This document shows, piece by piece, positions 16,909 through 38,782 of a stretch of 64,000 bases of DNA. The position numbers and the translations under genes are program-made. The DNA is from an uncultured Lachnospiraceae bacterium (GTDB lineage Bacteria > Bacillota > Clostridia > Lachnospirales > Lachnospiraceae), in NCBI GenBank assembly GCA_947625015.1, contig CANQMR010000003.1, forward strand, positions 62,001 to 126,000, written 5' to 3'. The notes under the pieces were generated by a model, which was not told the DNA's origin, ran no database searches, and saw only the letters and a program-made list of their open reading frames with translations. Numbering within the stretch: position 1 is the first letter of the stretch; each line of letters begins with the position of its first letter.

Positions 16909-17586
16909 TTAAGAAAAATAGTCATACTTAGTGGATTCAAAATTATCGTTGTAGGCCATTCCTTTTGCATTGTACTGGCTGGTAATACTAGAAGCATTGG
17001 CCGCCGCATTTTCCGCCACCTTTAAACCGATATAGGAGGTGATGTCGGTAAAATCCGCCTCGCTGCCAAATACTTTTTTCAGCGTTTCCAAATCTGCGCT
17101 CTCTAATTTTTTGGTATCTACGGTAAGGGAGCCGTCCTTGTTCTGCGTGATTCCTACAGTGTCCAACAGCTCTGCATTATCCCCTGCCGCACCAATCAGC
17201 TCCTTCCGGTAAAATGCGTTTAAGGAGCCGTCTGCATCCTTTAGCAGCTTAAGGGCCTTATTGTAAGACTCCACCATAGTCTGTACTGCCTGAAGAATAT
17301 CCTCTGTGCTCCCGCTTTCCTCTGCCTTGGCAAAAAGGGTGTCCTCCCCGTCTGCAAACAAGGCGGCGGAAGAAAGCGCCAAATCCTCTGCGGCAACCTC
17401 CAATTTCTGGTAGCCCTGCTGCTTTTCAGACACCTGCTGCACATCATTTTTACTGCGGTTCAACGCATCGAAAAGCGAATTAGAACCTCCCTGCTTTTTG
17501 CTCAGCGCGTCCAACAGACTGCTCTGTACCAGAGGAAGTCCGGATTCCCTTGAAGCCTGCATCATCATCTGTGTTGTTATTCGCAT
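16909..17586 (-). CDS. FliD-like hypothetical protein (flagellar cap-related C-terminal segment)
   Basis: A 225-residue protein with no signal peptide. The start MRITTQMMMQ resembles the N-terminus of hook-filament junction protein FlgL, and the region DTVGITQNKDGSLTVDTKKLESADLETLKKVFG resembles the closing part of FliD filament caps, where GI-x5-GTLSLD is typical. It is too short to be a complete FliD or FlgL. The C-terminal 45 residues are rich in Ala, Asn and Tyr. It lies 25 bp downstream of another unknown gene, so the pair is one unit behind a sigma-D-like element. A flagellar or exported role is inferred from these resemblances and from regulation. Confidence 0.6.
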   Translation of the reverse strand: MRITTQMMMQASRESGLPLVQSSLLDALSKKQGGSNSLFDALNRSKNDVQQVSEKQQGYQKLEVAAEDLALSSAALFADGEDTLFAKAEESGSTEDILQAVQTMVESYNKALKLLKDADGSLNAFYRKELIGAAGDNAELLDTVGITQNKDGSLTVDTKKLESADLETLKKVFGSEADFTDITSYIGLKVAENAAANASSITSQYNAKGMAYNDNFESTKYDYFS

Positions 17587-17611
17587 ATCATTATCCTCCT
17601 TTTTTTGTTGC

Positions 17612-18259
17612 TTATCCCGCTGCTCCGGTAAGTGCCGGTGTAAACAGCATCATGGTCGCCGGGGAAGCCGGCGTATTTGAAACCGTAAATTCGCCCTCTC
17701 CCAGCTTTGCCAGTAAATCCTTCTCTAAAGCATGCTGCATCTGCATACGGGCGTATAGCTCCTGCAACATCTCCTTTTTCTTTTTTCTGCGCCTTGCGCT
17801 CCTGTCTTTCTTATCTGCTTTGCGTTCAACGCCATAGCTGCTGGCCCGATACTCTCCCGGAGAACGGCCAATCGTAATAATCTCATTGACCCTGCAAGGA
17901 TATGTGCCTGTCGTATCCCGCTTAATCAGCGACAGCATTTTCTCACGATATTCGGGCTGCTCCTTCATCCTTTTCCAGCCCTCGTCCGTAATCCGCACCG
18001 CAAGGCTGTTAATCCCTCCCGACATGGGAATCTTTGCCACCTCCGCATAAAACTCCTGCTGGAACTGAAACATTTCCTCCTCGCTGGTAAGCCTGCGGGA
18101 AGGAACTTCGTCCTCGCTCTTCATTCTGACTGTCACCGCGCCTGTCTGTTCTTTCCCGTAATCTGTTTCATCCGTTTTGGCCGGTTCTTCCGCCTTTGTA
18201 TCAGACGCCTTAAGATATGCGCTGAAATTGGTGCATGGTCCCGTTCCGTTTACCCTCAT
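17612..18259 (-). CDS. Hypothetical protein, possible member of the 17-37 kb unknown family
   Basis: 215 residues, soluble, no classical signal peptide. The N-terminus MRVNGTGPCTNFSAYLKA has the short N-x(2-5)-Y/F-x2-AY look of its neighbours. The middle (FYAEVAKIPMSGGINSLAVRITDEGWKRMKEQPEYREKM) recalls the paralogues at 20.0 and 34-37 kb, where a short motif is followed by a K/R-M-x-x-x-P helix. A strongly basic KKDRSARRRKKKKEM helix follows. I chose the ATG at 18259 because AGGAGG is seven bases upstream; an ATG at 18265 is too close. A sigma-D-like -10 (ACCGATAT) lies 40 bp upstream. Function unknown. Confidence 0.6.
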   Translation of the reverse strand: MRVNGTGPCTNFSAYLKASDTKAEEPAKTDETDYGKEQTGAVTVRMKSEDEVPSRRLTSEEEMFQFQQEFYAEVAKIPMSGGINSLAVRITDEGWKRMKEQPEYREKMLSLIKRDTTGTYPCRVNEIITIGRSPGEYRASSYGVERKADKKDRSARRRKKKKEMLQELYARMQMQHALEKDLLAKLGEGEFTVSNTPASPATMMLFTPALTGAAG

Positions 18260-18298
18260 TCCCATTCCTCCTGCCCTTCATATTGTCTGCTATAGCTT

Positions 18299-18306
18299 AT
18301 ATCGGT
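18299..18306 (-). promoter_or_regulatory. Sigma-D-like -10 element before the 17.6-18.3 kb gene pair
   Basis: ACCGATAT on the minus strand, seven of eight bases of the flagellar sigma-D consensus GCCGATAT. No good TAAA-type -35 is found at 15 bp (TGCT instead), so this promoter is weaker evidence than those at 21.1 and 38.8 kb. Confidence 0.45.
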
Positions 18307-18387
18307 ACGCTTTCCTAAAAAAGCAACACCAAAAGCACCAATCGACCATTTGCGCATAAAATGATATTTCCCTACATCATAATAACC

Positions 18388-18421
18388 AAAAAGAGTCCCG
18401 AAAATCTTCGGAACTCCTTTT
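18388..18421 (-). terminator. Terminator of the 18.4-19.1 kb gene
   Basis: On the minus strand a stem of AGGAGT-CCGAA against TTCGG-ACTCT with a short loop and a T run, 20-50 bp after the stop codon. The stop-proximal position makes it a standard rho-independent terminator. Confidence 0.8.
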
Positions 18422-18439
18422 GATTATCTGTTACTGAAC

Positions 18440-19078
18440 TTATGCTACAGCGTCTGTCTCCTTTGATGCATAGTAGTCGTCAAACAGCTTGTTGGTAGCT
18501 TTCAGGGTATCCTGAGAAATTCCGGGAAGCTCGCCGCCCCATGCTTTCTCAGCTAACTTGTAGCCCTTCTCAACAGCAGCCTGCATCTCTTTCATCTTGT
18601 CGACATCATCTCCGGCAAGCGCGCTTGCGAAATCAAAAAGACGTTGAGAAGTCTGCTTTACTCCCCAATAACCGTCCTCTGCAATATCCTTCTGCGCCTG
18701 CGCCTTGGTCTCGGCATCTACTGTATAGTTGCCACTGGCGATGAACTTCCAAAAACTGTCATCTGCCTGACTGTATACAGTTCCCTGCTTAGATATCATC
18801 TTATTGACAAGACTCAATAAGCTCTGCTCTCTTGCAGCCTGATCATTCTTAAGCTGCTCTACCAATGCTGCCCGGTCTTCCTTGCTCATCTTGTTGACAG
18901 AATAAGTAGCCTTCTTGGTGTCCTGAGAACCCTTCTCATAGACAACTCCATCAGACTCTTTGCTCTCCACTGCGGATGCTGCTGTGTTCTCTTTAGCAGT
19001 CTCTGCGGCGGCAGCGCTTGTTGCTGTGGTGCCGTAAGCACCTGTGTAATTACTTACACCATTCACTCCTACTGACAT
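18440..19078 (-). CDS. Hypothetical Ala-rich exported-type protein
   Basis: 212 residues. The N-terminal 60 are low complexity, rich in Ala, Thr, Ser and Glu (NGVSNYTGAYGTTATSAAAA), like the disordered ends of flagellar axial or type III-exported proteins. The rest is helical, with KMSKEDRAALVEQLKNDQ and LFDFASALAGDDVDKMKEMQ. No signal peptide and no recognised domain. The leader carries a sigma-A promoter, a small TGTAA-CGGA-TTACA hairpin and an AAGGAGG site, followed by a terminator at the end, so it is a single-gene unit. Function unknown; membership of the surrounding family rests on the N-terminal motif and shared leader element. Confidence 0.65.
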   Translation of the reverse strand: MSVGVNGVSNYTGAYGTTATSAAAAETAKENTAASAVESKESDGVVYEKGSQDTKKATYSVNKMSKEDRAALVEQLKNDQAAREQSLLSLVNKMISKQGTVYSQADDSFWKFIASGNYTVDAETKAQAQKDIAEDGYWGVKQTSQRLFDFASALAGDDVDKMKEMQAAVEKGYKLAEKAWGGELPGISQDTLKATNKLFDDYYASKETDAVA

Positions 19079-19130
19079 GCTATCATCCTCCTTGATTGTT
19101 AGGGCAGACTACAGACATCATGCCCTGCGC

Positions 19131-19144
19131 TGTAATCCGTTACA
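19131..19144 (-). promoter_or_regulatory. Leader hairpin with CGGA tetraloop (possible CsrA site)
   Basis: TGTAA-CGGA-TTACA on the minus strand: a 5-bp stem presenting GGA in a tetraloop, about 45 nt upstream of the GGA in the ribosome site of the 18.4 kb gene. This is the layout CsrA/RsmA proteins bind. Confidence 0.45.
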
Positions 19145-19149
19145 TTTGT

Positions 19150-19178
19150 ATTATGGAATATTTCCACATAAATTTCAA
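19150..19178 (-). promoter_or_regulatory. Sigma-A-type promoter of the 18.4 kb gene
   Basis: TTGAAA (19173-19178), 17-bp spacer, CATAAT (19150-19155) on the minus strand, upstream of the hairpin and ribosome site. Confidence 0.65.
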
Positions 19179-19239
19179 TAGGGATTGCATAAAAATACCA
19201 TTTTATTATACATATATTTGCCTAATGCACTAACAGCCT

Positions 19240-19824
19240 CTAAACTATCCCTGTTATAAATATCTCAAATCCGATGAGGATCAATATTACTCCACCCAGT
19301 ATAGTTGCTTTGCCGGCAAGTTTTGTCCCAAACTTCTTACCGACTGCCAAGCCGGACATACAGATAATAAATGTAACGACAGCAATAATCAGGGAACATA
19401 CCAATGCCATAAAGAAATCATATTCTGCAATCGTAAAACCGACTGACAGGGCATCTATAGAAGTTGCTATTCCCTGTATCAACAATGCCGCTGCGCCGAC
19501 CTGCGGATTTTCCATTTCATCCCCGCCGTTTTGCATCCCTTCGATCAGCATTGTACCTCCTATATACAACAGCATAATCAGGGCGAGCCAGGGAATATAC
19601 TTTTCAAACGTCTCTAAATGCTGAAGAATTGTATGTACACAGTTCCAGCCAATCATTGGCATCAGTGCCTGAAAAAAAGCGAACACACCTGCAACCCCGC
19701 ACATCTTCTTTCGTTTCATTCCGGGTTCATTCAATCCGTTGGCAAGCGACACTGAAAAGGCGTCCATCGCCAATCCAATACCAAGCAGCACACTGTTTAA
19801 AAAAAATAACAGATTCCATTCCAC
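19240..19824 (-). CDS. mntP: Putative manganese efflux pump MntP
   Basis: Six-segment membrane protein of the MntP/DUF204 family, built as two repeats carrying the signature aspartates: GLAMDAFSVSLANG near the N-terminus and IATSIDALSVG in the second half. The family exports Mn(II) and protects against manganese excess. The best start is GTG at 19824, eight bases after GGAGG, giving 194 residues of usual length; a longer frame reaches 19887 without a ribosome site. No yybP-ykoY manganese riboswitch is visible in the short upstream gap. The gene sits between two unknown family members but is not obviously related to them. Confidence 0.88.
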   Translation of the reverse strand: MEWNLLFFLNSVLLGIGLAMDAFSVSLANGLNEPGMKRKKMCGVAGVFAFFQALMPMIGWNCVHTILQHLETFEKYIPWLALIMLLYIGGTMLIEGMQNGGDEMENPQVGAAALLIQGIATSIDALSVGFTIAEYDFFMALVCSLIIAVVTFIICMSGLAVGKKFGTKLAGKATILGGVILILIGFEIFITGIV

Positions 19825-19940
19825 CTTCCGTTCCTCCCCATGTTTTATGCTTATTATACTCCACATAACCATAATTTCACAATACATTTTCTGCTGATAT
19901 TTCTTAGCAGGTATCCGTTTTCTGCCGCCTTTACAAACAC

Positions 19941-19965
19941 AAAAAAGGCCTGATGATCAGGCCTT
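19941..19965 (-). terminator. Terminator of the 20.0 kb gene
   Basis: Perfect AAGGCCTGAT/ATCAGGCCTT stem with a one-base loop centre and a T run on the minus strand, 28 bp after the stop codon. Confidence 0.85.
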
Positions 19966-19992
19966 CCTGTTATACATATAATACAAATCCGT

Positions 19993-21039
19993 CTATATCA
20001 GCATATTGATGGAAAAGGCATCAAAGCCCTCCGTATCGTCTCCGCCGTTGTCCTTCATCACAGCGACTTCTCCCATCCGCTGCATGGCTTTCTGCATCAG
20101 CGCCCTCACCTTGTTGACCTCATTCTCATCGCACATGCCTTTTTCAATTCCCCCCTGACACTGGGCTAAATCTGTGTTTAGAAGCGCCAAAACTGCCTGC
20201 ACCTGCTGGGAATTTTTTGCGGCGGAAATCTGCCTTAACCGTTTGCCCTCATTGACAGAAACACTACCGCCATAGGTTTCCGTCTCCATATTTCCTTCAC
20301 TGTCTATGGTAATCTTCATTCCCTGATAGCCCTTGACATTTTCCTGTGCGTTCGCCTCCATCTCGTCCGCCGCCTTCAAATTCTCAAAAAGTTTCTTCCG
20401 CTTTTCTTCATCATTGACGCACGCTTTCAGATAGCTTTTAGAAATCTTTACCATGCCCTTATTCACCGTCTTATAATTAGAGAACAGGTAATCTGACAAT
20501 TCATCTACATTGGAAAAAGTGACAGTCTGTGATTTCTCCTTTTCTTTCTGTGCGGCAGTTTCCTTTGCCTTTTTCTTCTTTGCCGTATTCAGGCTGTCGA
20601 GAATCTCCTGCATCCAGCTTCCCTTCTTATTCCTTGACAGGGGAATCACGCTCTTTTTGTTATCGCCTGCCTGTGAAATCCCCCATGCCCTAAGTCCGCC
20701 GTCCTCAGTGATAATAAAGCCATGGGCTTTAAGCCCCTTCTGGTTCGCTAAAGATTTCTGCACACTGACGCAGTCATAGATTAACGCCTCATATTCCAGC
20801 CGCTTTTCCGGATCTTTTTCCATCTCCCTCAATATATTCGGGGCAATGGAAATATTATTCAAGCCGCTTCCCTGAAACGGGGCTGTGCCTGCCCGAAAAT
20901 TCGTATCGGAATACTTATCCTGCAAATCCGCTAAAACGCTTTTTCCCTCTTCCTTTTCTTTTTCTTCCTTGTCTACCCTGCTCTTTGCGTAGGCGTACGC
21001 CGCCTCTGATACCCAACTGTTTCCAACTTTTACCGCCAT
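19993..21039 (-). CDS. Hypothetical protein (DUF6033-like), sigma-D promoter
   Basis: 348 residues, no classical signal peptide or membrane segment. The N-terminus (VGNSWVSEAAYAYAKSRV) is followed by an acidic/basic helix. The core is ISIAPNILREMEKDPEKRLEYEALIYD, then GLKAHGFIITEDGGLRAWGIS, and the same order of elements recurs in the three 34-37 kb proteins. From memory these resemble a Lachnospiraceae family labelled DUF6033; I could not check this. The second half is a long KKKKAKETAAQKEKEK helix and an alpha-helical tail. The leader has a sigma-D-type promoter and a GTAA-TGGA-TTAC hairpin. A flagellar-regulon, possibly exported protein is inferred. Confidence 0.65.
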   Translation of the reverse strand: MAVKVGNSWVSEAAYAYAKSRVDKEEKEKEEGKSVLADLQDKYSDTNFRAGTAPFQGSGLNNISIAPNILREMEKDPEKRLEYEALIYDCVSVQKSLANQKGLKAHGFIITEDGGLRAWGISQAGDNKKSVIPLSRNKKGSWMQEILDSLNTAKKKKAKETAAQKEKEKSQTVTFSNVDELSDYLFSNYKTVNKGMVKISKSYLKACVNDEEKRKKLFENLKAADEMEANAQENVKGYQGMKITIDSEGNMETETYGGSVSVNEGKRLRQISAAKNSQQVQAVLALLNTDLAQCQGGIEKGMCDENEVNKVRALMQKAMQRMGEVAVMKDNGGDDTEGFDAFSINMLI

Positions 21040-21067
21040 ATTCTCGTCCTCCTTGATATTTACGTCC

Positions 21068-21079
21068 GTAATCCATTAC
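21068..21079 (-). promoter_or_regulatory. Leader hairpin with TGGA tetraloop (possible CsrA site)
   Basis: GTAA-TGGA-TTAC on the minus strand, about 22 nt upstream of the GGA-containing ribosome site of the 20.0 kb gene. Compared with the 35-37 kb leaders (GAAA-CGGA-TTTC), the second stem pair is exchanged (T-A for A-T), so pairing is preserved. Confidence 0.5.
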
Positions 21080-21115
21080 AGTAAAATAAAAGTGGTTTTG
21101 CTCCTCTATTATACT

Positions 21116-21142
21116 ATATCGGTTTACATCTGTAAATAATTA
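21116..21142 (-). promoter_or_regulatory. Sigma-D (flagellar) type promoter
   Basis: Minus strand TAAT (21139-21142), 15-bp spacer, ACCGATAT (21116-21123). This matches 10 of 12 bases of the consensus TAAA-N15-GCCGATAT with exact spacing, upstream of the 20.0 kb gene. Confidence 0.68.
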
Positions 21143-21171
21143 AGGGCTTTTCCCATTTTAATATGTATTAC

Positions 21172-21220
21172 TAAAAAAATATTCCTCCGAACAACAGATT
21201 TCCATTGTTCAAAGGAATAT
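21172..21220 (-). terminator. Terminator of aroB
   Basis: Minus-strand hairpin with two paired blocks, ATATTCCT/AGGAATAT and GAACAA/TTGTTC, ending in a run of seven T. It lies 27 bp after the aroB stop. Confidence 0.83.
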
Positions 21221-21246
21221 GTATTTTGCCAGTTATATAATACCGG

Positions 21247-22359
21247 CTACATCTCCATGATAATCTCTCTTGCCAGACCTTCCTCAATGGGCGTCGCAAA
21301 CACACCCGGTTCAAACTCCACAATACCGCCGATACTCTTCTGGATTACAAACCGCAGCCTGCCGTCCCTCACCTTTTTGTCGGTATAGAGTTTCCTGACA
21401 AGGGTTTCTCTGTCAATATATTCCGGAATCTTTACCGGAAGTCCTGCTTTTTCCAAAAGGGCAGTTACCCGGTTTTGTTCTTCTTCTGTCATATAACCAA
21501 GGCGGCAGGCCAGCCCTGTCTGGGCGGCTAACCCGATAGCTACCGCCTCCCCATGAAGCAGCCGGTAATCGCTGACCGTCTCTATTGCCCGGCCCACCGT
21601 ATGTCCTAAATTGAGGACCTCCCGGAGTCCGCTTTCCCGTTCATCCTTCATTACCACCTGATATTTCACCTGGCAGTTCTTCTCCGCGATATGTTCGCAG
21701 GCTTTCCGGTCAAGGGCCAGAATATCCTCCATATGGCTTTCCAGATAATCAAAAAATTCCCGGTCTGCCAGACAGGCATGCTTAATGGTCTCCGCCAGTC
21801 CGCTTTTTACCTGGCGCTCAGGCAGCGTCTTCCACGCCGCAATATCAATGTACACCTTTTCCGGCTGGTTAAACAGTCCGATCAGGTTCGTCGCCAACGG
21901 CGTATCCACAGCCGTCTTGCCCCCCACAGAGGCGTCCGCCGCCGCCAAAAGGGTAGTGGCGTAATTGATAAAGGGAACTCCTCTCCCAAAGGTTCCTGCC
22001 ACAAATCCGGCCAAGTCCGTAACCACGCCGCCGCCGACGGCAATCACGCAACAGTCCCGGCGGTAGCCTTTTGCCAGCATGGCGTCCTCTAATTCCTCTT
22101 TTGTTCTGCGGGACTTCTGTTTCTCGCCCTCCGCAAAAGTGAACAGATCAGCCTGATAACCCGCCTCCTGCAACAGATGAAAAATCCGTTCCCCATGCAG
22201 GTCCTTGACAATGCTGTCCGTAATGACTGCAAATTTATGAATCTTTCCCACCAGACCGGACTTTAAGTCCTCAACAAGCTTCTCCTCTAACCCATAACCA
22301 ATTTCTATCTCATAGCTGTCGTCTACAATCTTTTTCAGTTCCACATGAAATGTACGCAT
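21247..22359 (-). CDS. aroB: 3-dehydroquinate synthase
   Basis: Cytoplasmic NAD-dependent enzyme converting DAHP to 3-dehydroquinate in the shikimate pathway. Clear motifs: GEKQKSRRT for phosphate and NAD binding, GGGVVTDLAGFVAGTFGRGVP, TTLLAAADASVGGKTAVD, and metal ligands in GLAETIKHA, NLGHTVGRAIE and HGEAVAIG. The 370 residues are normal length. No other aro gene is adjacent. It lies 74 bp downstream of the diguanylate cyclase gene on the same strand with no clear terminator, so read-through is possible. Confidence 0.96.
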   Translation of the reverse strand: MRTFHVELKKIVDDSYEIEIGYGLEEKLVEDLKSGLVGKIHKFAVITDSIVKDLHGERIFHLLQEAGYQADLFTFAEGEKQKSRRTKEELEDAMLAKGYRRDCCVIAVGGGVVTDLAGFVAGTFGRGVPFINYATTLLAAADASVGGKTAVDTPLATNLIGLFNQPEKVYIDIAAWKTLPERQVKSGLAETIKHACLADREFFDYLESHMEDILALDRKACEHIAEKNCQVKYQVVMKDERESGLREVLNLGHTVGRAIETVSDYRLLHGEAVAIGLAAQTGLACRLGYMTEEEQNRVTALLEKAGLPVKIPEYIDRETLVRKLYTDKKVRDGRLRFVIQKSIGGIVEFEPGVFATPIEEGLAREIIMEM

Positions 22360-22433
22360 ATCTTCTCTGCTCCCGATATATAATCTGTTATTTTATAAAG
22401 CACCTGTCCAAAGCTCACCGGACTGCGGCAGCT

Positions 22434-25089: not shown

Positions 25090-25452
25090 TCATTGCTCCT
25101 GATAGCGGGCGTATGCCTGTTTTACCTTCTGGTAACGGGACTTGGGAACCGAAAGCTCCTCCCCCGTCGTCAGCCGCAGCACGTAACTGCTTATCTTCTG
25201 TATGTAGCGCATATTGACTAAAAAGCTCTGGTGTATCCTCAGAAAATCCATGCCCTCCATGTCTTTTTCAATATCATTTAATTTGCGGTAAATACTGAAT
25301 GTCCCGTCCTTTGTATAAAACAGATTCCTATGCCTGTTGGTTTCGATATAAATGATATCCTCTGCCCGCAAGGTCTGCTCTCCTTCTACAAAGGCGAAGT
25401 TCACCGTAAGCTCCTGCTTTTCCTGTTTTTTCAATCTGTCCTCCACCTGCAC
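25090..25452 (-). CDS. Single-domain LytTR DNA-binding regulator
   Basis: About 120 residues, almost entirely a LytTR domain: IIYIETNRHRNLFYTKDGTFSIYRKL, FLRIHQSFLVNMRYIQKI and LSVPKSRYQKVKQAY. It has no receiver domain, so it is not a standard response regulator. Start is uncertain: GTG at 25452, GTG at 25446 (GAGG eight bases before), or a rare upstream ATA near 25491 that has AGGAG five bases before it. The gene follows the M56/BlaI pair and is preceded by two direct repeats with 21-bp period, the spacing LytTR proteins bind, which suggests autoregulation. Confidence 0.82.
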   Translation of the reverse strand: MQVEDRLKKQEKQELTVNFAFVEGEQTLRAEDIIYIETNRHRNLFYTKDGTFSIYRKLNDIEKDMEGMDFLRIHQSFLVNMRYIQKISSYVLRLTTGEELSVPKSRYQKVKQAYARYQEQ

Positions 25453-25521
25453 TTCCTCATTATCCTTTGCATATATCTTTGGTATTAGTATCGGTTCTCC
25501 TGCCGCCTTTTTTCAACCTTA

Positions 25522-25557
25522 ATTGCACAAAACGACCATATCATTGCACGAAATGAC
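25522..25557 (-). promoter_or_regulatory. Direct repeats, 21-bp period, probable LytTR operator
   Basis: Minus strand GTCATTTCGTGCAAT (25543-25557) and GTCGTTTTGTGCAAT (25522-25536), 13 of 15 bases identical, exactly 21 bp apart, in the gap before the LytTR gene. LytTR dimers typically read two repeats two helical turns apart. Confidence 0.65.
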
Positions 25558-25559
25558 TA

Positions 25560-26813
25560 TTACAGATATTTAAACAGCCAGATCAATATATCCTTGTCTC
25601 CCTTAATATAGGGAATCACCTGCGTTTGTTCTTTGTTCTTAAGGTCAATAATAGCAGCATTGCCACCGCCGCCGATTCCCGGCAGCTTGTAAAAGCCGTC
25701 AAAAAACAGACCCGCCATATCATCTTTCCGGTTCGCCTCCGGCAGCAGTTCCCGAAAAGCCTCCATATCCACATAAACATTCTCTTCATCAATATGAACT
25801 GCGCTATGCAGCTCCTCGCTGTCTTCCACCAATGCCTGCTTGCCGGTCTGGTCATACACCGCCCAGGAATCTATAACGGTATACCGGGGATAGGAAGCCT
25901 TCACGATGCCACCCGCAAGAAAAGCATAGAGCGCAATGCCAAACGCCAGAAAAGCAGCCATTTTCTTTCTGTTATAAGGTCTGTAATCCGCAATCCCCAT
26001 AATTCTGCGCTTAAACTGCCGGTACTGCTGCTCACCGGCAAAGGCGACTGCCCTGCCCATATTCCGGTTATCCTTGGGAACCGCCTTCATACTCTTTATC
26101 AGCAGCCTGCCATAATCATAGGGGCTCTGTCTCCCGTTTTGCATTGTAACCCGGTCGCAAATCTCCTCTAAATCCGTCTGAAAATATTTAACACAGATAT
26201 GTACAAGGGGATTCAGCCATAAAAGCATCCGCACCGCATCCCAGAGCAGATAGAACCACAAATGCCCCAACCGGATATGCGTCTTCTCGTGAAGAATAAT
26301 TGCCTCTAACTCCTCCCGGTTAAAGTTCTCCACCACCTGAGCGGGCAGTACAATGCGGGGACGGAACACTCCCGCAGTAAAGGGGGACATGGCCGTATCG
26401 CTTACATATACCTTCTGCCCGCAAATGGTTGCCGCCGGAAGCGTCCGGATATGCCTTTTCAATCCCTTACGCTGCCTTAAAAGATAGATTCCAACAAACA
26501 GGATTCCGGCAATATACAGCCAGCAAAACCATAGATGCATAGCGCAAAAATCATGCCAGCCAAACAGAAGAACAAAGCCGGTATGCGTCTGATAAATACA
26601 GGTCAGCTTTCCGACAAAAAGGCATAGCGGCAATAACCCCCACAACATTCCCCGCACAAAGACAGCATGGCGAAACAGCGTTCTCCGCAAAAGCAGAATT
26701 ACAAGCATGACTGCGAGGGAAACGGTAACGCCCCTTCCCAGAAGAACAGTGCAGTAATCTACCCAGCCGCAAACACATCTGGCAAATGCATCAAACCACA
26801 GACGAAAAGTCAT
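25560..26813 (-). CDS. M56 (BlaR1/MecR1-type) membrane metalloprotease without beta-lactam domain
   Basis: 417 residues: membrane segments in the first 115, an M56 zinc protease core with HEKTH at 175-179 and the downstream EEICD ligand region, a further membrane segment at about 288-306, then an outer C-terminal domain of about 110 residues. BlaR1 and MecR1 carry a penicillin-binding sensor there; this protein has a short unrelated domain with the motif FYKLPGIGGGG. On sensing its signal the protease should trigger removal of the BlaI repressor encoded upstream, whose gene overlaps this one by four bases. A second such pair occurs at 37-38.7 kb. The ligand is unknown. Confidence 0.85.
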   Translation of the reverse strand: MTFRLWFDAFARCVCGWVDYCTVLLGRGVTVSLAVMLVILLLRRTLFRHAVFVRGMLWGLLPLCLFVGKLTCIYQTHTGFVLLFGWHDFCAMHLWFCWLYIAGILFVGIYLLRQRKGLKRHIRTLPAATICGQKVYVSDTAMSPFTAGVFRPRIVLPAQVVENFNREELEAIILHEKTHIRLGHLWFYLLWDAVRMLLWLNPLVHICVKYFQTDLEEICDRVTMQNGRQSPYDYGRLLIKSMKAVPKDNRNMGRAVAFAGEQQYRQFKRRIMGIADYRPYNRKKMAAFLAFGIALYAFLAGGIVKASYPRYTVIDSWAVYDQTGKQALVEDSEELHSAVHIDEENVYVDMEAFRELLPEANRKDDMAGLFFDGFYKLPGIGGGGNAAIIDLKNKEQTQVIPYIKGDKDILIWLFKYL

Positions 26814-27211
26814 CTCTTATCACATCCTTTGCTTTTTTCAAGAATGGCCTCCAACTCCTTAATCTGTTCCTCCGTCAGCTCACAGTTCTGAATCAGGGCA
26901 GCCAATGCATTGGTCTTATTGCCGGAGAAATAGCTTTCCGTAAAACGGCGGCTCTTGTCCATAAGGCACTCCTTCCTTGAACGGAGTGGAAAATAGTGAT
27001 ATACCCTGGAATCCTTCTTGTCTACCGTATAGTCAATAATCCCCTTTTGATACAGCCGGTTAATCAATACCCGCACCGTCTTGGGAGAAAATTCCTTGGT
27101 TCCTTCTAACCTCTTGATAATCTCCAGTGAAGTCATGGGAATGCTGCTCTCCCATAAAATATCCATAATCAGCCATTCCGTCTCACTGGGCGTCATATCC
27201 TTCTTTAACAT
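26810..27211 (-). CDS. BlaI/MecI/CopY family repressor
   Basis: 133-residue winged-helix repressor: MTPSETEWLIMDILWESSIP, TSLEIIKRLEG, TVRVLINRLYQKGIIDYTVD, then a C-terminal dimerisation helix (ALIQNCELTEEQIKELEAIL). In known systems the partner M56 protease causes its cleavage and induction. The ATG at 27211 has GGAAGG eight bases upstream; the longer frame from 27235 starts with GTG and lacks a site. A consensus sigma-A promoter with an overlapping TACA-N2-TGTT dyad lies upstream, so autorepression is likely. Confidence 0.9.
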   Translation of the reverse strand: MLKKDMTPSETEWLIMDILWESSIPMTSLEIIKRLEGTKEFSPKTVRVLINRLYQKGIIDYTVDKKDSRVYHYFPLRSRKECLMDKSRRFTESYFSGNKTNALAALIQNCELTEEQIKELEAILEKSKGCDKR

Positions 27212-32445: not shown

Positions 32446-32475
32446 ACACACTCTCTCCTTAGATTTTATTTCCCC

Positions 32476-32662: not shown

Positions 32663-32805
32663 TCCGCCACGCCCGAAGCCGGTTACTATGTTGCTGCGAT
32701 TCGTAACAGATAAAAACAGTATAGTATTAATGGAAAAAAATTGCAACGATAAATGCGATTGTATCAGTGTGCACAGTGGTTAAATTTCTTAAAATGAATT
32801 CGGGG

Positions 32806-32833
32806 TTTACAAATATTTTATGCGTGATATATT
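32806..32833 (+). promoter_or_regulatory. Sigma-A promoter of the TauE-type gene
   Basis: TTTACA (32806-32811), 16-bp spacer, TATATT (32828-32833), ending about 30 bp before the start codon. Confidence 0.65.
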
Positions 32834-32864
32834 TTAATGATAAATGGATTCGGAGGTGGCTTAC

Positions 32865-33644
32865 ATGCTGTTTAAAATTATTATCTGCTTTCTGGCAGGT
32901 ATAGGCGCCGGATTAGGGACGGGGTTCGCGGGAATGAGCGCCGCAGCGGTCACCAGTCCCATGCTGATTACTTTTCTCCACCTGCCCGCCTATGAAGCGG
33001 TAGGGATTGCACTGGCCAGTGATGTATTGGCAAGCGCCATCAGCGCATATACATATGGGAAAAATAAAAATCTGGATATTAAAAACGGAATGATCATGAT
33101 GATTACCGTATTGCTTTTTACCATGGTCGGCAGCTTTGTTGCCAGCAAAGTACCCAACAGAACCATGGGAAATTTCTCCGTTTTTATGACCTTCTTACTG
33201 GGAATTAAATTCATTGTAAAACCGGTTATGAACACGAAGGAAGCTATGGCTGATGTCAGCGCCAAAAAACGAATTGTCCAGTCCGTAGTAAGCGGCATGC
33301 TTGTCGGATTCATCTGTGGATTTATCGGCGCCGGCGGAGGAATGATGATGCTGTTAATCCTGACCAGTATTCTGGGATACGAGTTAAAGACCGCAGTCGG
33401 CACCAGTGTATTCATTATGGCTTTCACCGCTTTTACCGGTTCCGTCAGCCACTTTGCCATCGGCGGTCTGCCGGATATAAGCTGCCTGATTTTCTGCATA
33501 ATTTTTACTCTGCTTTGGGCGAGAATTGCGGCGCTGTTTGCAAACAGGACAAGCGCCGCCACATTAAACCGGGCGGTGGGCGTCGTGCTCTCCGCACTCG
33601 GTGTGGTTATATTATCTGTCAATCTGCTAAGCGGAACGCCTTGA
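32865..33644 (+). CDS. TauE/SafE family sulfite-type exporter
   Basis: Polytopic membrane permease of 259 residues with about seven to eight segments arranged as two repeats; the glycine-rich loops AGIGAGLGTGFAGMSAAAVTSP-like (first repeat, start of protein) and GFICGFIGAGGGMMML mark the family. Members move sulfite, sulfoacetate or other small organic sulfur anions; substrate here is open. I start at ATG 32865, eight bases after GGAGG; the ATG at 32844 lies before that site. The gene stands alone. Confidence 0.87.
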   Translation: MLFKIIICFLAGIGAGLGTGFAGMSAAAVTSPMLITFLHLPAYEAVGIALASDVLASAISAYTYGKNKNLDIKNGMIMMITVLLFTMVGSFVASKVPNRTMGNFSVFMTFLLGIKFIVKPVMNTKEAMADVSAKKRIVQSVVSGMLVGFICGFIGAGGGMMMLLILTSILGYELKTAVGTSVFIMAFTAFTGSVSHFAIGGLPDISCLIFCIIFTLLWARIAALFANRTSAATLNRAVGVVLSALGVVILSVNLLSGTP

Positions 33645-33666
33645 ATTTACGCCGATGTAAAAGAAT

Positions 33667-33695
33667 TTTGACAGGGGAAAACGTTCCATGTCAAA
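33667..33695. promoter_or_regulatory. Dyad TTTGACA / TGTCAAA upstream of the XRE gene
   Basis: A perfect 7-bp inverted repeat with 15-base spacing inside the 108-bp gap before the XRE regulator. It could be an operator for that protein or a weak hairpin; TTGACA is contained but no good -10 follows. Confidence 0.35.
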
Positions 33696-33752
33696 CGCCT
33701 TTGATTGAAATAAAAACACCGGAGGAATATAGTAACCGCAGGAGGTACGGAA

Positions 33753-34337
33753 ATGGAATTAGGAAATCAAATCAAAAAAATGCGAAACGAATTATCGCTC
33801 TCCCAAGATGAACTGGCTGAAAAAATATTCGTATCAAGACAATCCATTTCTAACTGGGAAAATGATAAGACTTATCCTGATATTAAAAGCCTGATTCTTC
33901 TAAGCGAGGTGTTTTCTGTATCTTTAGATACTTTAGTCAAAGGAGATATACCGGAAATGAAAAAGAAAATTGATGAACAGGAATTTGTGGAATTTCAAAG
34001 GGACAGCAAGATATATACCGCACTGTTTATTGCAGTTCTCCTGCTGCCTCTCCCCCTTGCCAGACTCTTGGACTGGTGGGCGTTTGCAGTTTACCTTCCG
34101 TTACTTGGCGCGGCTATGTATTATGCCTTCCGTCTGGAAAAATACAAAAAAAAATATGATATCCAGACCTACAAAGAAATTGTTGCTTTTACAGAAGGAA
34201 AAAATTTAAATGAGTTGGAAAAAGCCATGGAAAAAGGAAAACGCCCCTATCAAAAGGTAATGCTGGCAATCCTCTCAGCCCTGCTTGCCATTATCGTTTC
34301 CAGCATCATGGCCTGGATCATCAAGTGGCTTTCCTGA
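33753..34337 (+). CDS. XRE-family regulator with C-terminal membrane domain
   Basis: 194 residues. Residues 1-60 form a typical HTH_3 domain (IKKMRNELSLSQDELAEKIFVSRQSISNWEN, SLILLSEVFSVSLDTLVKGD). After a linker come two close hydrophobic segments (about 90-125) and another at the C-terminus (MLAILSALLAIIVSSIMAWII). Such membrane-tethered XRE proteins are common in Firmicutes and often respond to envelope signals. AGGAGGT precedes the ATG. A terminator overlaps the stop codon. Its target is unknown; the neighbouring three-paralogue operon is convergent. Confidence 0.85.
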   Translation: MELGNQIKKMRNELSLSQDELAEKIFVSRQSISNWENDKTYPDIKSLILLSEVFSVSLDTLVKGDIPEMKKKIDEQEFVEFQRDSKIYTALFIAVLLLPLPLARLLDWWAFAVYLPLLGAAMYYAFRLEKYKKKYDIQTYKEIVAFTEGKNLNELEKAMEKGKRPYQKVMLAILSALLAIIVSSIMAWIIKWLS

Positions 34338-34358
34338 AAAGGAAGGCCACTTTCATTT
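34323..34358. terminator. Terminator at the XRE gene stop codon
   Basis: Perfect 12-bp stem AAGTGGCTTTCC/GGAAGGCCACTT (one mismatch position tolerated by G-T) with loop TGAAAA containing the stop, followed by TTTCATTTTT. It may also serve the convergent paralogue operon. Confidence 0.8.
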
Positions 34359-34374
34359 TTCCATTTATAAATTC

Positions 34375-35232
34375 TTATACCTGCATATCAAAATTATTTC
34401 CCGACACAACCGGATTTTTTATCTTATCTGACCGGCCCTGTTCGTCCTCCGTTGCCGCCTGGATTATAAGCTGCATCTCCTCATCATCAATATAAATTTC
34501 TCCGTTATCGGAATGGTTTAACTTTTCTAATAACATCTGCTCCGCTTTATCCTGTAAGGTATCCGGTTGGGCGACGCCGTTATCTTTCAAGGCGTCTGGT
34601 CCGGCGGTAATGTCTGGTTCTTTTTCCTTTTCTGCCTCTTTTACTTCTTCGGCTTTTTCTTCTAATTGTTCCGTAATCTGCTCTGCCTTTTTACGGGCAT
34701 TTTCGCGGGTTTTTTCTATATGCTTTTTGACATTTCCTTCGGCTTCCTTGCGGAGTCGTTCATTCAGTTTATCCTTTTTTACACTAAAAGCAATACAACT
34801 GTATTTTCCATTCGCGTCAATATAACTATGGTGATATACCGTAGTGAATCCCACAGCTTTGTGATAATTATCCAGTATTTTTGTCATTTTTTCAACGCCG
34901 CCAATTAGCTCTTTCATTTTCTTTTCCATTGCAGGATCATTTTGCATTTTCTCCAAAAGTTTCTGGTCGATTGTCAGCGTTTTGCCAGTCTTATCTGTTG
35001 CATAGCTACTTCCCATGCGAAATTCTACGCTCGGCGCAAGTTTAGACAGTTCTTTCATATATTCTGCTGTACTACCTACCTTGCCGCTCCCAACATCAGT
35101 TTTTTTCTGTGTTGCCGCAGTTTCCGATACTTCCTGTTTGGAAACCGCTCTCTGTTTTGCTGTTTCCTGCTGTTTTTGTGCCGCACATGCATTCTCATAT
35201 GCGTTGTAGTTGTTTGTAATTTCCATTGCCAT
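34375..35232 (-). CDS. Unknown paralogue 3 of 3 in the BlaI-M56 operon
   Basis: 285 residues. N-terminus MAMEITNNYNAYENACAAQK is nearly shared by all three copies, then a variable linker and a core with LTIDQKLLEKMQNDPAMEKKMKELI and TTVYHHSYIDANGKYSC. A long charged coiled coil follows (about 160-210), and the last 55 residues, ending VVSGNNFDMQV, are almost identical in all three. No signal peptide, membrane segment or known catalytic motif. The leader holds GAAA-CGGA-TTTC and AAGGAGG. The 20.0 kb protein has a similar core. Export by a flagellar-type route is a guess from regulation. Confidence 0.65.
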   Translation of the reverse strand: MAMEITNNYNAYENACAAQKQQETAKQRAVSKQEVSETAATQKKTDVGSGKVGSTAEYMKELSKLAPSVEFRMGSSYATDKTGKTLTIDQKLLEKMQNDPAMEKKMKELIGGVEKMTKILDNYHKAVGFTTVYHHSYIDANGKYSCIAFSVKKDKLNERLRKEAEGNVKKHIEKTRENARKKAEQITEQLEEKAEEVKEAEKEKEPDITAGPDALKDNGVAQPDTLQDKAEQMLLEKLNHSDNGEIYIDDEEMQLIIQAATEDEQGRSDKIKNPVVSGNNFDMQV

Positions 35233-35265
35233 AATTTTACTCCTCCTTGATTATCAAAATCGCTA

Positions 35266-35277
35266 GAAATCCGTTTC
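35266..35277 (-). promoter_or_regulatory. Leader hairpin GAAA-CGGA-TTTC of paralogue 3
   Basis: A 4-bp stem presenting CGGA in the loop, about 25 nt upstream of the GGA-containing ribosome site. Candidate CsrA-binding element. Confidence 0.42.
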
Positions 35278-35291
35278 CCGTTTATCTGCTC

Positions 35292-36128
35292 TTATACCTG
35301 CATATCAAAATTATTTCCCGACACAACCGGATTTTTTATCTTATCTGACCGCCCCTGTTCGTCCTCCGTTGCCGACTGGATTATAAGCTGCATCTCCTCA
35401 TCATCAATATAGATTTCTCCGTTATCGGAATAGTTTAACTTTTCTAATAACATCTGCTCCGCTTTATCCTGTAAGGCGTCCGGTTGAGTAGCGCCGTTAT
35501 CTTTCGGGGCGTCTGATTCGGCTGTGATGTCCGGCTCTTTTTCCTTTTCTGCTTCTTTTGCTTCTTCGGCTTTTTCTTCTAACTGTTCCGTAAGCTGTTC
35601 TGTTTTTTTACGGGCATTTTCGCGGGTTTTTTCTATCTGCTTTTTAGCATTTTCCTCTGCTTCCTTGCGGAGTTTTTCATTTGCCAAATCTTTTTTTACA
35701 ACAACAGCAAAATGTGAAAATTTTCCATTTTCATCTATATAGCTATGGCTGCACACAACGGTATGTCCCATTGATTTTGAAAAATTATCAGCAAATTTCA
35801 GGGCTCTTTCTACATCTTTCAGACGTTGTGTATATTCCTTAGCTGCGGCAGGATCATTCTGCATTTTTTCCAAGAGTTTCGGGTTAATATCTACAATGTT
35901 TACTTTGCCATCGTTTTGTAGGTTAATTCCCTGTCCAATTTGCAGCTTCATATACGGAACCTGTTTCTGCAAATTTTTAAGATATTCTTCATTGCTGTAT
36001 TTCCCGACTGCACTCTGTTTTACCTCTGTATTGCCGGCAGCCGTTTTGTCCGGATTGCCAGCCCCTTTCTTTTGGGCCGCATAAGTATTTTCATATGCAC
36101 TGTAATTGTTTGTAATTTCCATTGCCAT
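35292..36128 (-). CDS. Unknown paralogue 2 of 3 in the BlaI-M56 operon
   Basis: 278 residues, same plan as its neighbours: near-identical first 20 residues (MAMEITNNYSAYENTYAAQK), variable middle (YMKLQIGQGINLQNDG, VDINPKLLEKMQNDPAAAKE, TVVCSHSYIDENGKFSHFAV), charged coiled coil (EKTRENARKKTEQLTEQLEEK) and the conserved C-terminal module. The coiled coil and C-terminus are closest to paralogue 3, so these two are the younger duplication or have been homogenised. Function unknown. Confidence 0.65.
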   Translation of the reverse strand: MAMEITNNYSAYENTYAAQKKGAGNPDKTAAGNTEVKQSAVGKYSNEEYLKNLQKQVPYMKLQIGQGINLQNDGKVNIVDINPKLLEKMQNDPAAAKEYTQRLKDVERALKFADNFSKSMGHTVVCSHSYIDENGKFSHFAVVVKKDLANEKLRKEAEENAKKQIEKTRENARKKTEQLTEQLEEKAEEAKEAEKEKEPDITAESDAPKDNGATQPDALQDKAEQMLLEKLNYSDNGEIYIDDEEMQLIIQSATEDEQGRSDKIKNPVVSGNNFDMQV

Positions 36129-36160
36129 AGCCTCGTCCTCCTTGATAATTAAAATTATTT

Positions 36161-36172
36161 GAAATCCGTTTC
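36161..36172 (-). promoter_or_regulatory. Leader hairpin GAAA-CGGA-TTTC of paralogue 2
   Basis: Same element as before paralogues 1 and 3, about 25 nt upstream of AAGGAGGA. The surrounding gap is also duplicated, so identity alone is not independent evidence. Confidence 0.42.
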
Positions 36173-36186
36173 CCGTTTATCTACTC

Positions 36187-37005
36187 TTATACCTGCATAT
36201 CAAAATTATTTCCCGACACAACCGGATTTTTTATCTTATCTGACCGGTCCTGTTCGTCCTCCGTTGCCGCCTGGATTATAAGCCGCATCTCCTCATCATC
36301 AATATAGATTTCTCCATTTTCGGAATGATTTAATTTTTCTAATAGCATCTGTTCCGCTTTTTCCAACGGTGTATCATTTTTGACAATAACAACACCTGAG
36401 TTTTCCTGTTCTCCATCCGCTTTTTTATCTTCTGTTCCTGTTTTATTGTCCTCCAACGCTTCCTGTAATGCTTCCCGTTTTTCTGCCGCTTTTTCCTTTG
36501 ATTTTTCAAGCAGTTCTTCCGCATTTTTCCGTCTTTCTTCCCGTAGCTTATCGCTCAAATTCAACATAAAGTCATTCCTGACAAGTGCAATTTGGCGATA
36601 TTTTCCGTTTTCGTCTATATAATCATGCTTAAATACAACACTCCATCCACTGGCATTCATTACACTGTCCAACATATTTACGGCTGATTCGACACCTTTA
36701 ATCAATTCTTTCATTTCTTTTTCTTTCTCTGGATCTTTCTGCATCTTATCTAAAAGTAATGGATTGATTGTCAAAGTTTTACCGCTTTTTGCGGATGAAA
36801 ATGTATTTCCAATCTTACACTCGACGCTTGGAACAAGCTTTGCCAGTTCATTCATATAATCCGCTGTGCTTTTTGCCTTACTACTCCCCGCAGTTTCCGG
36901 TACTTCCCGTTTGGAAGCCGCTCTCTGTTTTGCTGTCTCCTGCTGTTTTTGTGCCGCATAGGTATTTTCATATGCGTTATAGTTGTTTGTAATTTCCATT
37001 GCCAT
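36187..37005 (-). CDS. Unknown paralogue 1 of 3 in the BlaI-M56 operon
   Basis: 272 residues and the most divergent copy. It shares the N-terminal MAMEITNNYNAYENTYAAQK and the C-terminal module (EIYIDDEEMRLIIQAATEDE to FDMQV). The middle has LTINPLLLDKMQKDPEKEKE and SVVFKHDYIDENGKYRQ, then a shorter charged helix (EERRKNAEELLEKSKEKAAEK). It begins 48 bp after the M56 gene stop, with hairpin and AAGGAGG in between, so it is translated from the same message. No recognised function. Confidence 0.65.
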   Translation of the reverse strand: MAMEITNNYNAYENTYAAQKQQETAKQRAASKREVPETAGSSKAKSTADYMNELAKLVPSVECKIGNTFSSAKSGKTLTINPLLLDKMQKDPEKEKEMKELIKGVESAVNMLDSVMNASGWSVVFKHDYIDENGKYRQIALVRNDFMLNLSDKLREERRKNAEELLEKSKEKAAEKREALQEALEDNKTGTEDKKADGEQENSGVVIVKNDTPLEKAEQMLLEKLNHSENGEIYIDDEEMRLIIQAATEDEQDRSDKIKNPVVSGNNFDMQV

Positions 37006-37037
37006 AGTTTCGTCCTCCTTGATAATTAAAATTATTT

Positions 37038-37049
37038 GAAATCCGTTTC
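37038..37049 (-). promoter_or_regulatory. Leader hairpin GAAA-CGGA-TTTC of paralogue 1
   Basis: Located between the M56 stop and paralogue 1, with the GGA loop about 25 nt before the ribosome-site GGA. Candidate CsrA site. Confidence 0.42.
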
Positions 37050-37053
37050 TGTT

Positions 37054-38313
37054 CTACAGTAGTTTTAACAGCTTTATCTGCCATTCATTTTCCCGATTAT
37101 CATAAGGCATTTTTACAATCTGCCCTTCCACATTTGGCTCATAACAGCAGCTATAGCTGAAACCTCCAACTCCGGGAAGTTTATAAATTCCCCCAAACAC
37201 AATAAAAATATCCCCCGATGCGTTCTGTTCCTGCAAATACTGTTCAAAGCATTTTCTATCTATATAGACATATCTGTCGTCCCAGGAAATCATCCGATGC
37301 AATGCATTACTGCTGCCAGTGTCCGAGAAAGTCACATTGTTACCGTCAAAGCCATAAACAATCACAATATCATTTTCATTATTTCTGCCATAAGAGTTGC
37401 TTCTAATTCCTGCCATCAACACGACTACAAGCAGAACGGCGCCTGCAAGCGTACCAAATGCCACACCACGCTTATACGGTTTGTACCCTGCAATCCTTGT
37501 CACCCGCCGCCTGATTTTACGGTATTCCTTATCTCCTGCAAATGTGGCGTACATATTAAAATCCTTATTTTCCGTCTGCAAAAGCCGCATAGTTTTCAAC
37601 AAAAGTCGTCCGTATGAGTAGGCGTCCGTCCGGTTCTTTTGGATTGTCGTCCAGTCGCAGATTTCTTCCATATCCTCATGGAGCTGTCTGGCCCCTATGG
37701 CAAGCAGCGGATTTATCCATAACAGCACCCGGAGAATATCCCACATAAAATAGAACACTAAATGCCCCAGACGAATATGCTCTTTTTCGTGCAGAAGAAT
37801 CGCCCGCAGCTCCTCTTTCCCGTACTGTTCCAATATGGTCTGCGGCACCACGATTTTGGGACGAAACACGCCGACTGTAAACGGGGTAACAGGAAGCCTT
37901 GTCACATACACAAGCGTCCCTTCTATCTGCCGTTGCTCCATGCCGTCAATCAGCTTTTTTAATTTTCTTCTCTTAAAAAGCCGCCGGGCAAGACACAAAA
38001 ACATAACGCCAAAATACAGCCAGTTTAACCACATATGCCTGTTGAAAATTCCTGTCCAACAGGTAAACAAAACCGCTCCTATCCTGCTCTCATAAAAAAA
38101 TTTCATTTTCCCGACAAACAGGATTGGAAGAAACAGGCTCCACAATGCGCCTTTTAAAAATACCCTGTTTTTTAGCAGCGTCTTCCGCAGGAGAAAAACC
38201 ACTGCAAATACCGCCGCAGACATCAACGCGCATCTCACAAGCTGTATGGTGTAGTAAAGCGCACCAAAATTCAAAAATCCTTCCATGTGTTCCATAAATT
38301 CCTGTACCCTCAT
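37054..38313 (-). CDS. M56 membrane metalloprotease, second BlaR1-like copy
   Basis: 419 residues with the same plan as the 25.6 kb protein: N-terminal membrane segments, zinc motif HEKEH at 175-179, EEICD downstream, a membrane segment near 285-303 and an outer domain of about 115 residues with IYKLPGVGGFS. There is no penicillin-binding domain. Its start overlaps the BlaI stop by four bases. The operon continues into three paralogues of unknown function, so this protease-repressor pair probably controls them. The sensed signal is unknown. Confidence 0.85.
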   Translation of the reverse strand: MRVQEFMEHMEGFLNFGALYYTIQLVRCALMSAAVFAVVFLLRKTLLKNRVFLKGALWSLFLPILFVGKMKFFYESRIGAVLFTCWTGIFNRHMWLNWLYFGVMFLCLARRLFKRRKLKKLIDGMEQRQIEGTLVYVTRLPVTPFTVGVFRPKIVVPQTILEQYGKEELRAILLHEKEHIRLGHLVFYFMWDILRVLLWINPLLAIGARQLHEDMEEICDWTTIQKNRTDAYSYGRLLLKTMRLLQTENKDFNMYATFAGDKEYRKIRRRVTRIAGYKPYKRGVAFGTLAGAVLLVVVLMAGIRSNSYGRNNENDIVIVYGFDGNNVTFSDTGSSNALHRMISWDDRYVYIDRKCFEQYLQEQNASGDIFIVFGGIYKLPGVGGFSYSCCYEPNVEGQIVKMPYDNRENEWQIKLLKLL

Positions 38314-38720
38314 CTTTTTCTGCGTGCTTTTTTCTTCGGTTTACACTGCTCTAAAATTTCTTCCAGTTCCCGGTACTGTTCTTCGGTCAGCTCTGCATTT
38401 TGCAGCAGGGCCGCCATTGCGGCATTGTCACTGCCGCCAAAATAACTGTCTACAAATTTCCTGCTTTTCTCCTTCTGGCAGTCCTCCCTTGATTTTTCCA
38501 CAGTATAGTGGTACACCCTCGCATCATGTTCGTCCACTGTGTAACTTAACACGCCCTTCTGCCACAAACGATTCAGCAGAACGCGCACCATCCGGGGGGA
38601 CATATCGGAGGTTTCTCTTATTTTTTGAATCACTTCTCTCGCTGTCATGGTTCCGCTTCCCGACCAAAAAATCTCCATAATCAGCCATTCGCTTTGACTC
38701 GGAGTCGTCTCCTTATCCAT
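38310..38720 (-). CDS. BlaI/MecI/CopY family repressor, second copy
   Basis: 136 residues, winged helix (TTPSQSEWLIMEIFWSGSGT, TAREVIQKIRE, MVRVLLNRLWQKGVLSYTVD) and dimerisation helices, ending in a basic KPKKKARRKR tail not seen in the first copy. ATG at 38720 has AGGAG upstream. The promoter ahead of it has sigma-D rather than sigma-A character, unlike the first BlaI pair. Head of a five-gene operon. Confidence 0.88.
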   Translation of the reverse strand: MDKETTPSQSEWLIMEIFWSGSGTMTAREVIQKIRETSDMSPRMVRVLLNRLWQKGVLSYTVDEHDARVYHYTVEKSREDCQKEKSRKFVDSYFGGSDNAAMAALLQNAELTEEQYRELEEILEQCKPKKKARRKR

Positions 38721-38755
38721 GCTCCCATCTCCTTTGTTAAATGATTTCAATCTGT

Positions 38756-38782
38756 ATATCGGATAAAATTTCTAAAATGTTA
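38756..38782 (-). promoter_or_regulatory. Sigma-D (flagellar) type promoter of the BlaI-M56-paralogue operon
   Basis: Minus strand TAAC (38779-38782), 15-bp spacer, TCCGATAT (38756-38763): 10 of 12 consensus bases with exact spacing. It lies about 35 bp upstream of the BlaI start. Confidence 0.68.

What the first reader, a model, noticed from the sequence alone, without database searches (positions are those of the whole stretch)
16909..38782. Dispersed family of unknown proteins placed under flagellar-type (sigma-D) promoters
Seen in the sequence: two promoters with TAA(T/C)-N15-(A/T)CCGATAT and exact spacing (21116-21142 and 38756-38782) and one good -10 (18299) stand before genes for small unknown proteins at 17.6, 20.0 and 34.4-37.0 kb. 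One member begins like FlgL and ends like FliD. Known: this promoter form is used by sigma-D/FliA for late flagellar genes. Inference: these proteins belong to the flagellar regulon and may be exported through the flagellar apparatus or act at the cell surface of motile cells. This is the best candidate in the window for an undescribed system.
Basis: partly seen in the sequence, partly recalled or inferred. Interest (0 to 1): 0.75.

Follow-up and report, generated by a model that had tools for sequence, protein, structure and literature searches.

The report
Flagellar-regulon accessory proteins of Lachnospiraceae
A group of undescribed small proteins, read from the same kind of genetic switch as the bacterial flagellum and found almost only in bacteria that build one, is probably shipped out through the flagellum's export channel.

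Summary
Both sigma-D boxes are real. One stands directly before a DUF6033 gene (19993-21039); the positional counterpart in a same-genus genome also has a box. The other precedes a blaI/blaR1-like pair, with three DUF6033 genes closely behind. The -10 at 18299 lacks a -35.

A strict box lies upstream of 40 of 78 named DUF6033 genes, against 11 of 655 other predicted genes in the same loci. In 299 genomes (298 genera) DUF6033 occurs in 99, of which 98 have FlhA; the exception has flagellin-type domains. Two window neighbours behave alike: the 16909 family (104 of 105) and the 18440 family (127 of 128). A microcompartment control shows no association.

The parts
21116..21142 (-). sigma-D (FliA) promoter TAAT-N15-ACCGATAT, 77 nt before the DUF6033 gene; overlaps a sigma-A-like TTTACA-17-TATAAT
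   Evidence: a sigma-D box also stands before the positional counterpart in G188 (L219), where the sigma-A -10 is not seen
19993..21039 (-). DUF6033 protein, 348 aa (family A)
   Evidence: Pfam PF19498 34.3 bits, cut-off 25
18440..19078 (-). 212-aa orphan (family D); no sigma-D box of its own here, sigma-A-like TTGAAA-17-CATAAT at 19178-19150; paralogue C21:34103 has a sigma-D-like box
   Evidence: family in 128 of 299 genomes, 127 with FlhA
17612..18265 (-). 217-aa orphan, possibly a very distant DUF6033 relative (34 columns only)
   Evidence: no Pfam family over its cut-off; hhalign P 0.005, probability 7%
16909..17586 (-). 225-aa headless FliD-like protein: FlgL-like first residues plus a FliD D1-type domain, no D2-D3 head (family B)
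18299..18305 (-). -10-like CCGATAT without a -35 at the right distance; not accepted as a sigma-D promoter
38756..38782 (-). sigma-D (FliA) promoter TAAC-N15-TCCGATAT, 36 nt before the blaI-like gene
38310..38720 (-). BlaI-like repressor (ATG start at 38720)
   Evidence: Pfam Penicillinase_R 81.8 bits
37054..38313 (-). BlaR1-like M56 metallopeptidase/sensor
   Evidence: Pfam Peptidase_M56 97.3 bits
36187..37005 (-). DUF6033 protein, 272 aa
   Evidence: PF19498 26.0 bits
35292..36128 (-). DUF6033 protein, 278 aa
   Evidence: PF19498 39.2 bits
34375..35232 (-). DUF6033 protein, 285 aa; the three share near-identical ends and a more variable middle
   Evidence: PF19498 28.1 bits

Best explanation
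DUF6033 (A), the headless FliD-like protein (B), the 18440 family (D) and a coiled-coil companion (C) are accessory proteins of the late flagellar regulon of Lachnospiraceae. Once the hook is finished and FlgM leaves the cell, sigma-D transcribes them together with flagellin (regulon membership: supported here by promoter and co-occurrence data for A, partly for D, weakly for B and C; the FlgM step is established knowledge). They have no membrane segment, most start with a flexible N-terminus low in charge, and canonical A is nearly free of cysteine, so they most likely leave through the flagellar type III apparatus as late substrates (inferred). B probably docks at the filament tip or hook-filament junction through its FliD-type D1 domain; A, C and D are cargo that is released or stays at the filament or cell surface (inferred). 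In several clusters GHKL/LytTR two-component proteins or BlaI/BlaR1 pairs sit beside them and may set when the variable copies are made (adjacency seen, function inferred).
Confidence: 0.6

Rival explanations
1. They belong to the sigma-D regulon but stay inside the cell, as regulators, chaperones or RNA/ribosome-associated factors tuning flagellin synthesis.
Confidence: 0.25
2. They are ordinary housekeeping or mobile genes and the boxes are chance or sigma-A promoters; the flagellar link is phylogenetic.
For: Overlapping sigma-A-like promoter at 21116; about half of the DUF6033 genes lack a strict box, and most B genes do.
Against: Odds ratios of 246 to 649 for the three families against 1.05 for an unrelated patchy family. 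Reversed motif in 0 of 78 upstream regions. Other genes 11 of 655.
Confidence: 0.05
3. The window trio behind blaI/blaR1 is a separate, envelope-stress or antibiotic-induced unit, not flagellar, although its proteins are DUF6033.
For: BlaI and BlaR1 are the promoter-proximal genes. BlaI genes also lie in the C22 cluster and in L225.
Against: A strict sigma-D box with exact spacing stands before blaI. The genes of the run scanned are BlaI, BlaR1 and DUF6033 only.
Confidence: 0.1

Closest known systems
Campylobacter jejuni Feds and FspA (sigma-28-dependent proteins; discussed as exported through the flagellum)
   Same: Non-flagellar genes under flagellar sigma-28 promoters; Feds are not required for motility; treated in a section on proteins exported by the flagellar apparatus (PMC9856085, passages of section 4.2)
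   Different: Another phylum; several families of their own, often clustered and multicopy, some beside GHKL/LytTR or BlaI/BlaR1 regulators; export not shown here; homology to Campylobacter proteins not tested
Campylobacter FlaC (secreted flagellin-like protein)
   Same: A flagellar-type protein that is secreted and not involved in motility (PMC9856085 passages; PMC4863622, abstract start in a listing)
   Different: FlaC is flagellin-like; family B is FliD-D1-like with an FlgL-like start
FliD, filament cap
   Different: 225 aa, no D2-D3 head, FlgL-like first residues; the genome has a separate 651-aa protein whose best matches are FliD models, and direct profile comparison with it aligns only 28 columns (probability 9%)
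Pfam PF19498 (DUF6033)
   Same: Four window proteins over the curated cut-off
   Different: Nothing; Pfam calls it a protein of unknown function, and no paper in the held library names it

Membership tests
sigma-D (FliA) regulon | promoter TAAA-N15-GCCGATAT type at exact spacing before the gene | tested here: met
   for 19993 and for the blaI run; 40 of 78 related DUF6033 genes. Not met for 16909, 17612 and 18440 in the window
sigma-D (FliA) regulon | genome encodes FliA/SigD and FlgM | tested here: met
   TIGR02479 257.3 bits and TIGR03824 62.4 bits, both over cut-off
sigma-D (FliA) regulon | expression lost without sigma-D | not testable with these tools
   needs a mutant
flagellar type III export substrate | flagellar export gate in the same genome | tested here: met
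   FlhA in 98 of 99 DUF6033 genomes, the window's own included; the other has flagellin-type domains
flagellar type III export substrate | flexible, weakly charged N-terminal signal, no Sec signal or membrane segment | tested here: inconclusive
   composition nearer to 13 known substrates than to background; 0 of 62 A and 0 of 23 own-genome candidates with a hydrophobic 19-mer; residues 1-29 of the A model nearly all at pLDDT under 50. Composition alone does not prove export
flagellar type III export substrate | export shown to depend on the flagellar gate | not testable with these tools
   needs secretome of a mutant
DUF6033 (PF19498) | score over Pfam's gathering cut-off of 25 bits | tested here: met
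   34.3, 28.1, 39.2 and 26.0 bits
FliD cap protein | D1 domain fold | tested here: met
   [not shown]
FliD cap protein | FliD_C model over cut-off | tested here: not met
   no FliD_C match of the window protein reported at E<=1; 9 of 13 family members match at E<=0.01
FliD cap protein | D2-D3 head | tested here: not met
   225 aa; model residues 55-201 align to D1 on both sides of the head
FlgL junction protein | FlgL profile over cut-off | tested here: not met
   only 12 N-terminal residues align, probability 5%; no TIGR02550 match
FlgM anti-sigma factor (for 18440-19078) | FlgM profile over cut-off | tested here: not met
   16.7 bits against 40.75
BlaI/BlaR1 pair | Penicillinase_R repressor next to an M56 sensor | tested here: met
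   81.8 and 97.3 bits; no NCBIfam bla/mec cut-off reached

The most novel reading that the evidence does not exclude
Flagellated Lachnospiraceae use the flagellum as a general secretion machine for a large, diversifying set of extracellular proteins: several undescribed families with conserved ends and variable cores, a headless FliD that modifies the filament tip or junction to let them out, and peptide-type (GHKL/LytTR) or BlaR1-type switches that choose which cargo is made.
Probability: 0.25. Interest if true: 0.87.

Novelty: new variant of a known kind. Interest (0 to 1): 0.68.

Why it matters
Flagellated Lachnospiraceae live in animal guts, and their flagellins are strong immune antigens (both recalled, not from a call). 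If they export further proteins through the flagellum, these would be an unread layer of host and neighbour contact. Several families now annotated only as unknown would gain a regulon, an export route to test and a phenotype (motile cells), and the headless FliD would give a new handle on how the filament tip can be altered.

Tried and rejected
A chance origin of the boxes was rejected. 'Everything in 16909-38782 belongs together' was rejected: the interval also holds unrelated genes, among them a sporulation sigma factor of the SigF/SigG subfamily, and others recognised only by recall (MntP-like 19240-19887, AroB-like 21247-22359). A sigma-D promoter at 18299 was rejected (no -35). Family D as FlgM was rejected. 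A link of D to DUF5610, which I recalled as a lead, stayed weak: 2 of 16 members, best E 0.071. 17612 as a DUF6033 member: only 34 columns, probability 7%; left open. Fold search for DUF6033 found nothing at E<=0.001; the HPF-like rows are too weak to use. PDB sequence search gave only low-level hits, best a proteasome subunit at E 0.003. In the literature searches for a prior description no listed title or abstract start describes these proteins; I read no full paper. The search for a paper on cysteine avoidance in exported flagellar proteins found none, so that rule rests on recall plus my own comparison. One search's cysteine background of 525 still contained family members; one search removed families A, B and C (417) and is the one to use.

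The N-terminal and cysteine comparisons of family A used 62 of the 79 usable proteins; the 23 own-genome candidates were chosen by place in a cluster or behind a box after I had seen their sequences. Family D boxes: 17 of 20 loci usable; family B: 7 of 8. Close-pair counts rest on the listed rows only: the tables were cut at the end. In one search some matched frames are 390-450 aa long, so a few family B counts may be other FliD-like proteins. Of the three genomes with sub-cut-off DUF6033 matches only, two have flagellin-type domains and G559 has none.
Full report
What is in the window. The one at 21116-21142 stands 77 nt before a 348-aa DUF6033 gene; a sigma-A-like promoter overlaps it. The one at 38756-38782 stands 36 nt before a BlaI-like gene, followed closely by a BlaR1/M56 gene and three DUF6033 genes; weak terminator-like and sigma-70-like matches occur inside this run, so a single operon is likely but unproven. 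All four DUF6033 proteins pass Pfam's cut-off. The -10 at 18299 has no -35.

Genome context. The genome (2.82 Mb, 47 contigs) has FlhA, a FliA/WhiG sigma, FlgM and FlgL over their cut-offs, a flagellin-like protein, and a 651-aa protein whose best matches are FliD models. Of 28 genome-wide TAA-N17-CCGATAT sites, 8 precede a predicted gene properly by the script's rule: flgM, flgL, flagellin, the two window sites, two unknown genes and one frame that I set aside as part of prfB by recall. Eleven DUF6033 matches over the cut-off lie in three places: the window, contig C22 and contig C10. The C22 and C10 clusters are strings of orphan genes with similar N-termini, next to a GHKL kinase and a response regulator that I read as LytTR type (not scanned). 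C22 also has a BlaI gene and a FliD_C orphan over Pfam's cut-off.

Promoter test across species. From one scan I took the best 80 of at least 499 named relatives; more than half of the titles name Lachnospiraceae, Eubacterium or Roseburia, and a few MAG titles name other groups such as Alistipes or Bacteroides. That the window's family is Lachnospiraceae is inferred from these titles. Of 78 with enough upstream sequence, 40 have TAA-N16-18-CCGATA within 300 nt, against 0 for the reversed motif and 11 of 655 other predicted genes. Of those 11, four are family B genes (relatives of window 16909) and one is family C, in loci brought in by DUF6033. Bases not fixed in the search still read TAAA and GCCGATAT. 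Thinning the 62 proteins of alignment A2 at 75% identity leaves 27 of 54 with a box. In G188, of the same genus, the gene in the corresponding position (L219:6690-7367, next to family D and B genes, similar C-terminal ending; no DUF6033 match at E<=0.01) has a sigma-D box at the matching place but not the sigma-A -10. So promoter evidence is strong for A, fair for D and weak for B.

Co-occurrence test. In 299 genomes of 298 genera, FlhA is in 155, DUF6033 in 99 of which 98 have FlhA, family B in 105 of which 104 and family D in 128 of which 127. The same genome, G235, is the exception each time and has flagellin-type domains, so its FlhA is probably missing from the assembly. A patchy unrelated family, BMC shell proteins, shows no link: 48 of 91, odds ratio 1.05. 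Within FlhA genomes A and B also go together, odds ratio 3.1, p 0.0014. In a draw of 291 genomes from the class, 12 are over the DUF6033 cut-off, 4 of them outside the family, and all 4 have flagellin-type domains; of three sub-cut-off genomes one, G559, has none. Close pairs among A, B and D are on the same strand in every listed row: 11 rows in 9 genomes, 7 in 6 (two rows being one overlapping frame) and 14 in 11. So the window's 16909-18440-19993 group is one case of a recurrent grouping. Family B lies in 14 of 80 named loci, 12 of them within 700 bp of DUF6033; a fourth family (C, coiled coil) in 13, 10 of them within 700 bp; all on the strand of DUF6033.

Why export is likely. The first 25 residues are rich in A/G/S/T/N/Q/Y (0.71 in 62 A, 0.64 in 23 own-genome candidates, 0.56 in 13 known exported flagellar proteins, 0.36 in 262 others) and lower in acidic residues than background (0.082, 0.060, 0.048 and 0.116); C is close to background in acidic share. 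None of 62 A, 14 B, 13 C or 23 own-genome candidates has a membrane-like segment. Canonical DUF6033 is cysteine-free in 58 of 62, against 22 of 417 background and 10 of 67 highly charged background proteins. Against this, the window copies have 1 to 4 cysteines each, non-exported flagellar proteins are also fairly low in cysteine, and A has a K/E-rich helix. The trio at 34375-37005 has near-identical ends (last 180 nt 92 to 98% identical, first 60 nt 85 to 92%) and a middle where 25-column windows fall to 16-20%, which fits conserved handling signals around changing cargo; gene conversion would look the same.

Verdict. Membership of DUF6033 in the sigma-D regulon is well supported (about 0.93, my estimate), and the flagellar link of A, B and D is nearly certain in this family. 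Export through the flagellar apparatus is the best mechanism (about 0.6). The working parallel is Campylobacter, where sigma-28-dependent Feds and the flagellum-secreted FspA and FlaC are described (PMC9856085, passages read; PMC5223770, abstract and section list read). The families here are different by name and setting (homology not tested) and, in the searches made, undescribed.

Noticed in passing
G000 C22:6229-8375, C10:94560-96648; L219:2950-4395, L220:347-1054, L221:7292-9417, L223:9906-12113, L224:2521-4245: GHKL (AgrC-type) histidine kinases and/or LytTR regulators repeatedly sit beside clusters of these orphan genes (the C22 and C10 regulators are read by eye). The stretches were chosen for clustering, so no rate is given.
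   Followed up: partly
L225:1063-3288: A BlaR1-like M56 sensor next to a BlaI gene and to family B and D genes carries a C-terminal DUF3879 domain (138.7 bits); no paper in the library names DUF3879.
   Followed up: partly
window 25090-27211: By my reading of the translations, a second BlaI/BlaR1-like pair followed by a LytTR-like protein, without DUF6033 genes beside it.
   Followed up: no
window 34375-37005: Three tandem DUF6033 copies with conserved ends (last 180 nt 92-98% identical) and a middle where 25-column windows fall to 16-20% identity.
   Followed up: partly
G000 C11:1765-2964 and C21:33674-33922: Two further unknown genes (399 and 82 aa) directly behind strict sigma-D boxes.
   Followed up: no
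window 19993-21039; L219:6690-7367; L223:6970-8319: Shared C-terminal ending SINMLI, VINMLI or SINMLM in proteins of different length.
   Followed up: no
G000 C10:84978-85496 and C10:85866-86384: Two identical 172-aa genes in tandem beside the C10 cluster.
   Followed up: no
[not shown]
   Followed up: no
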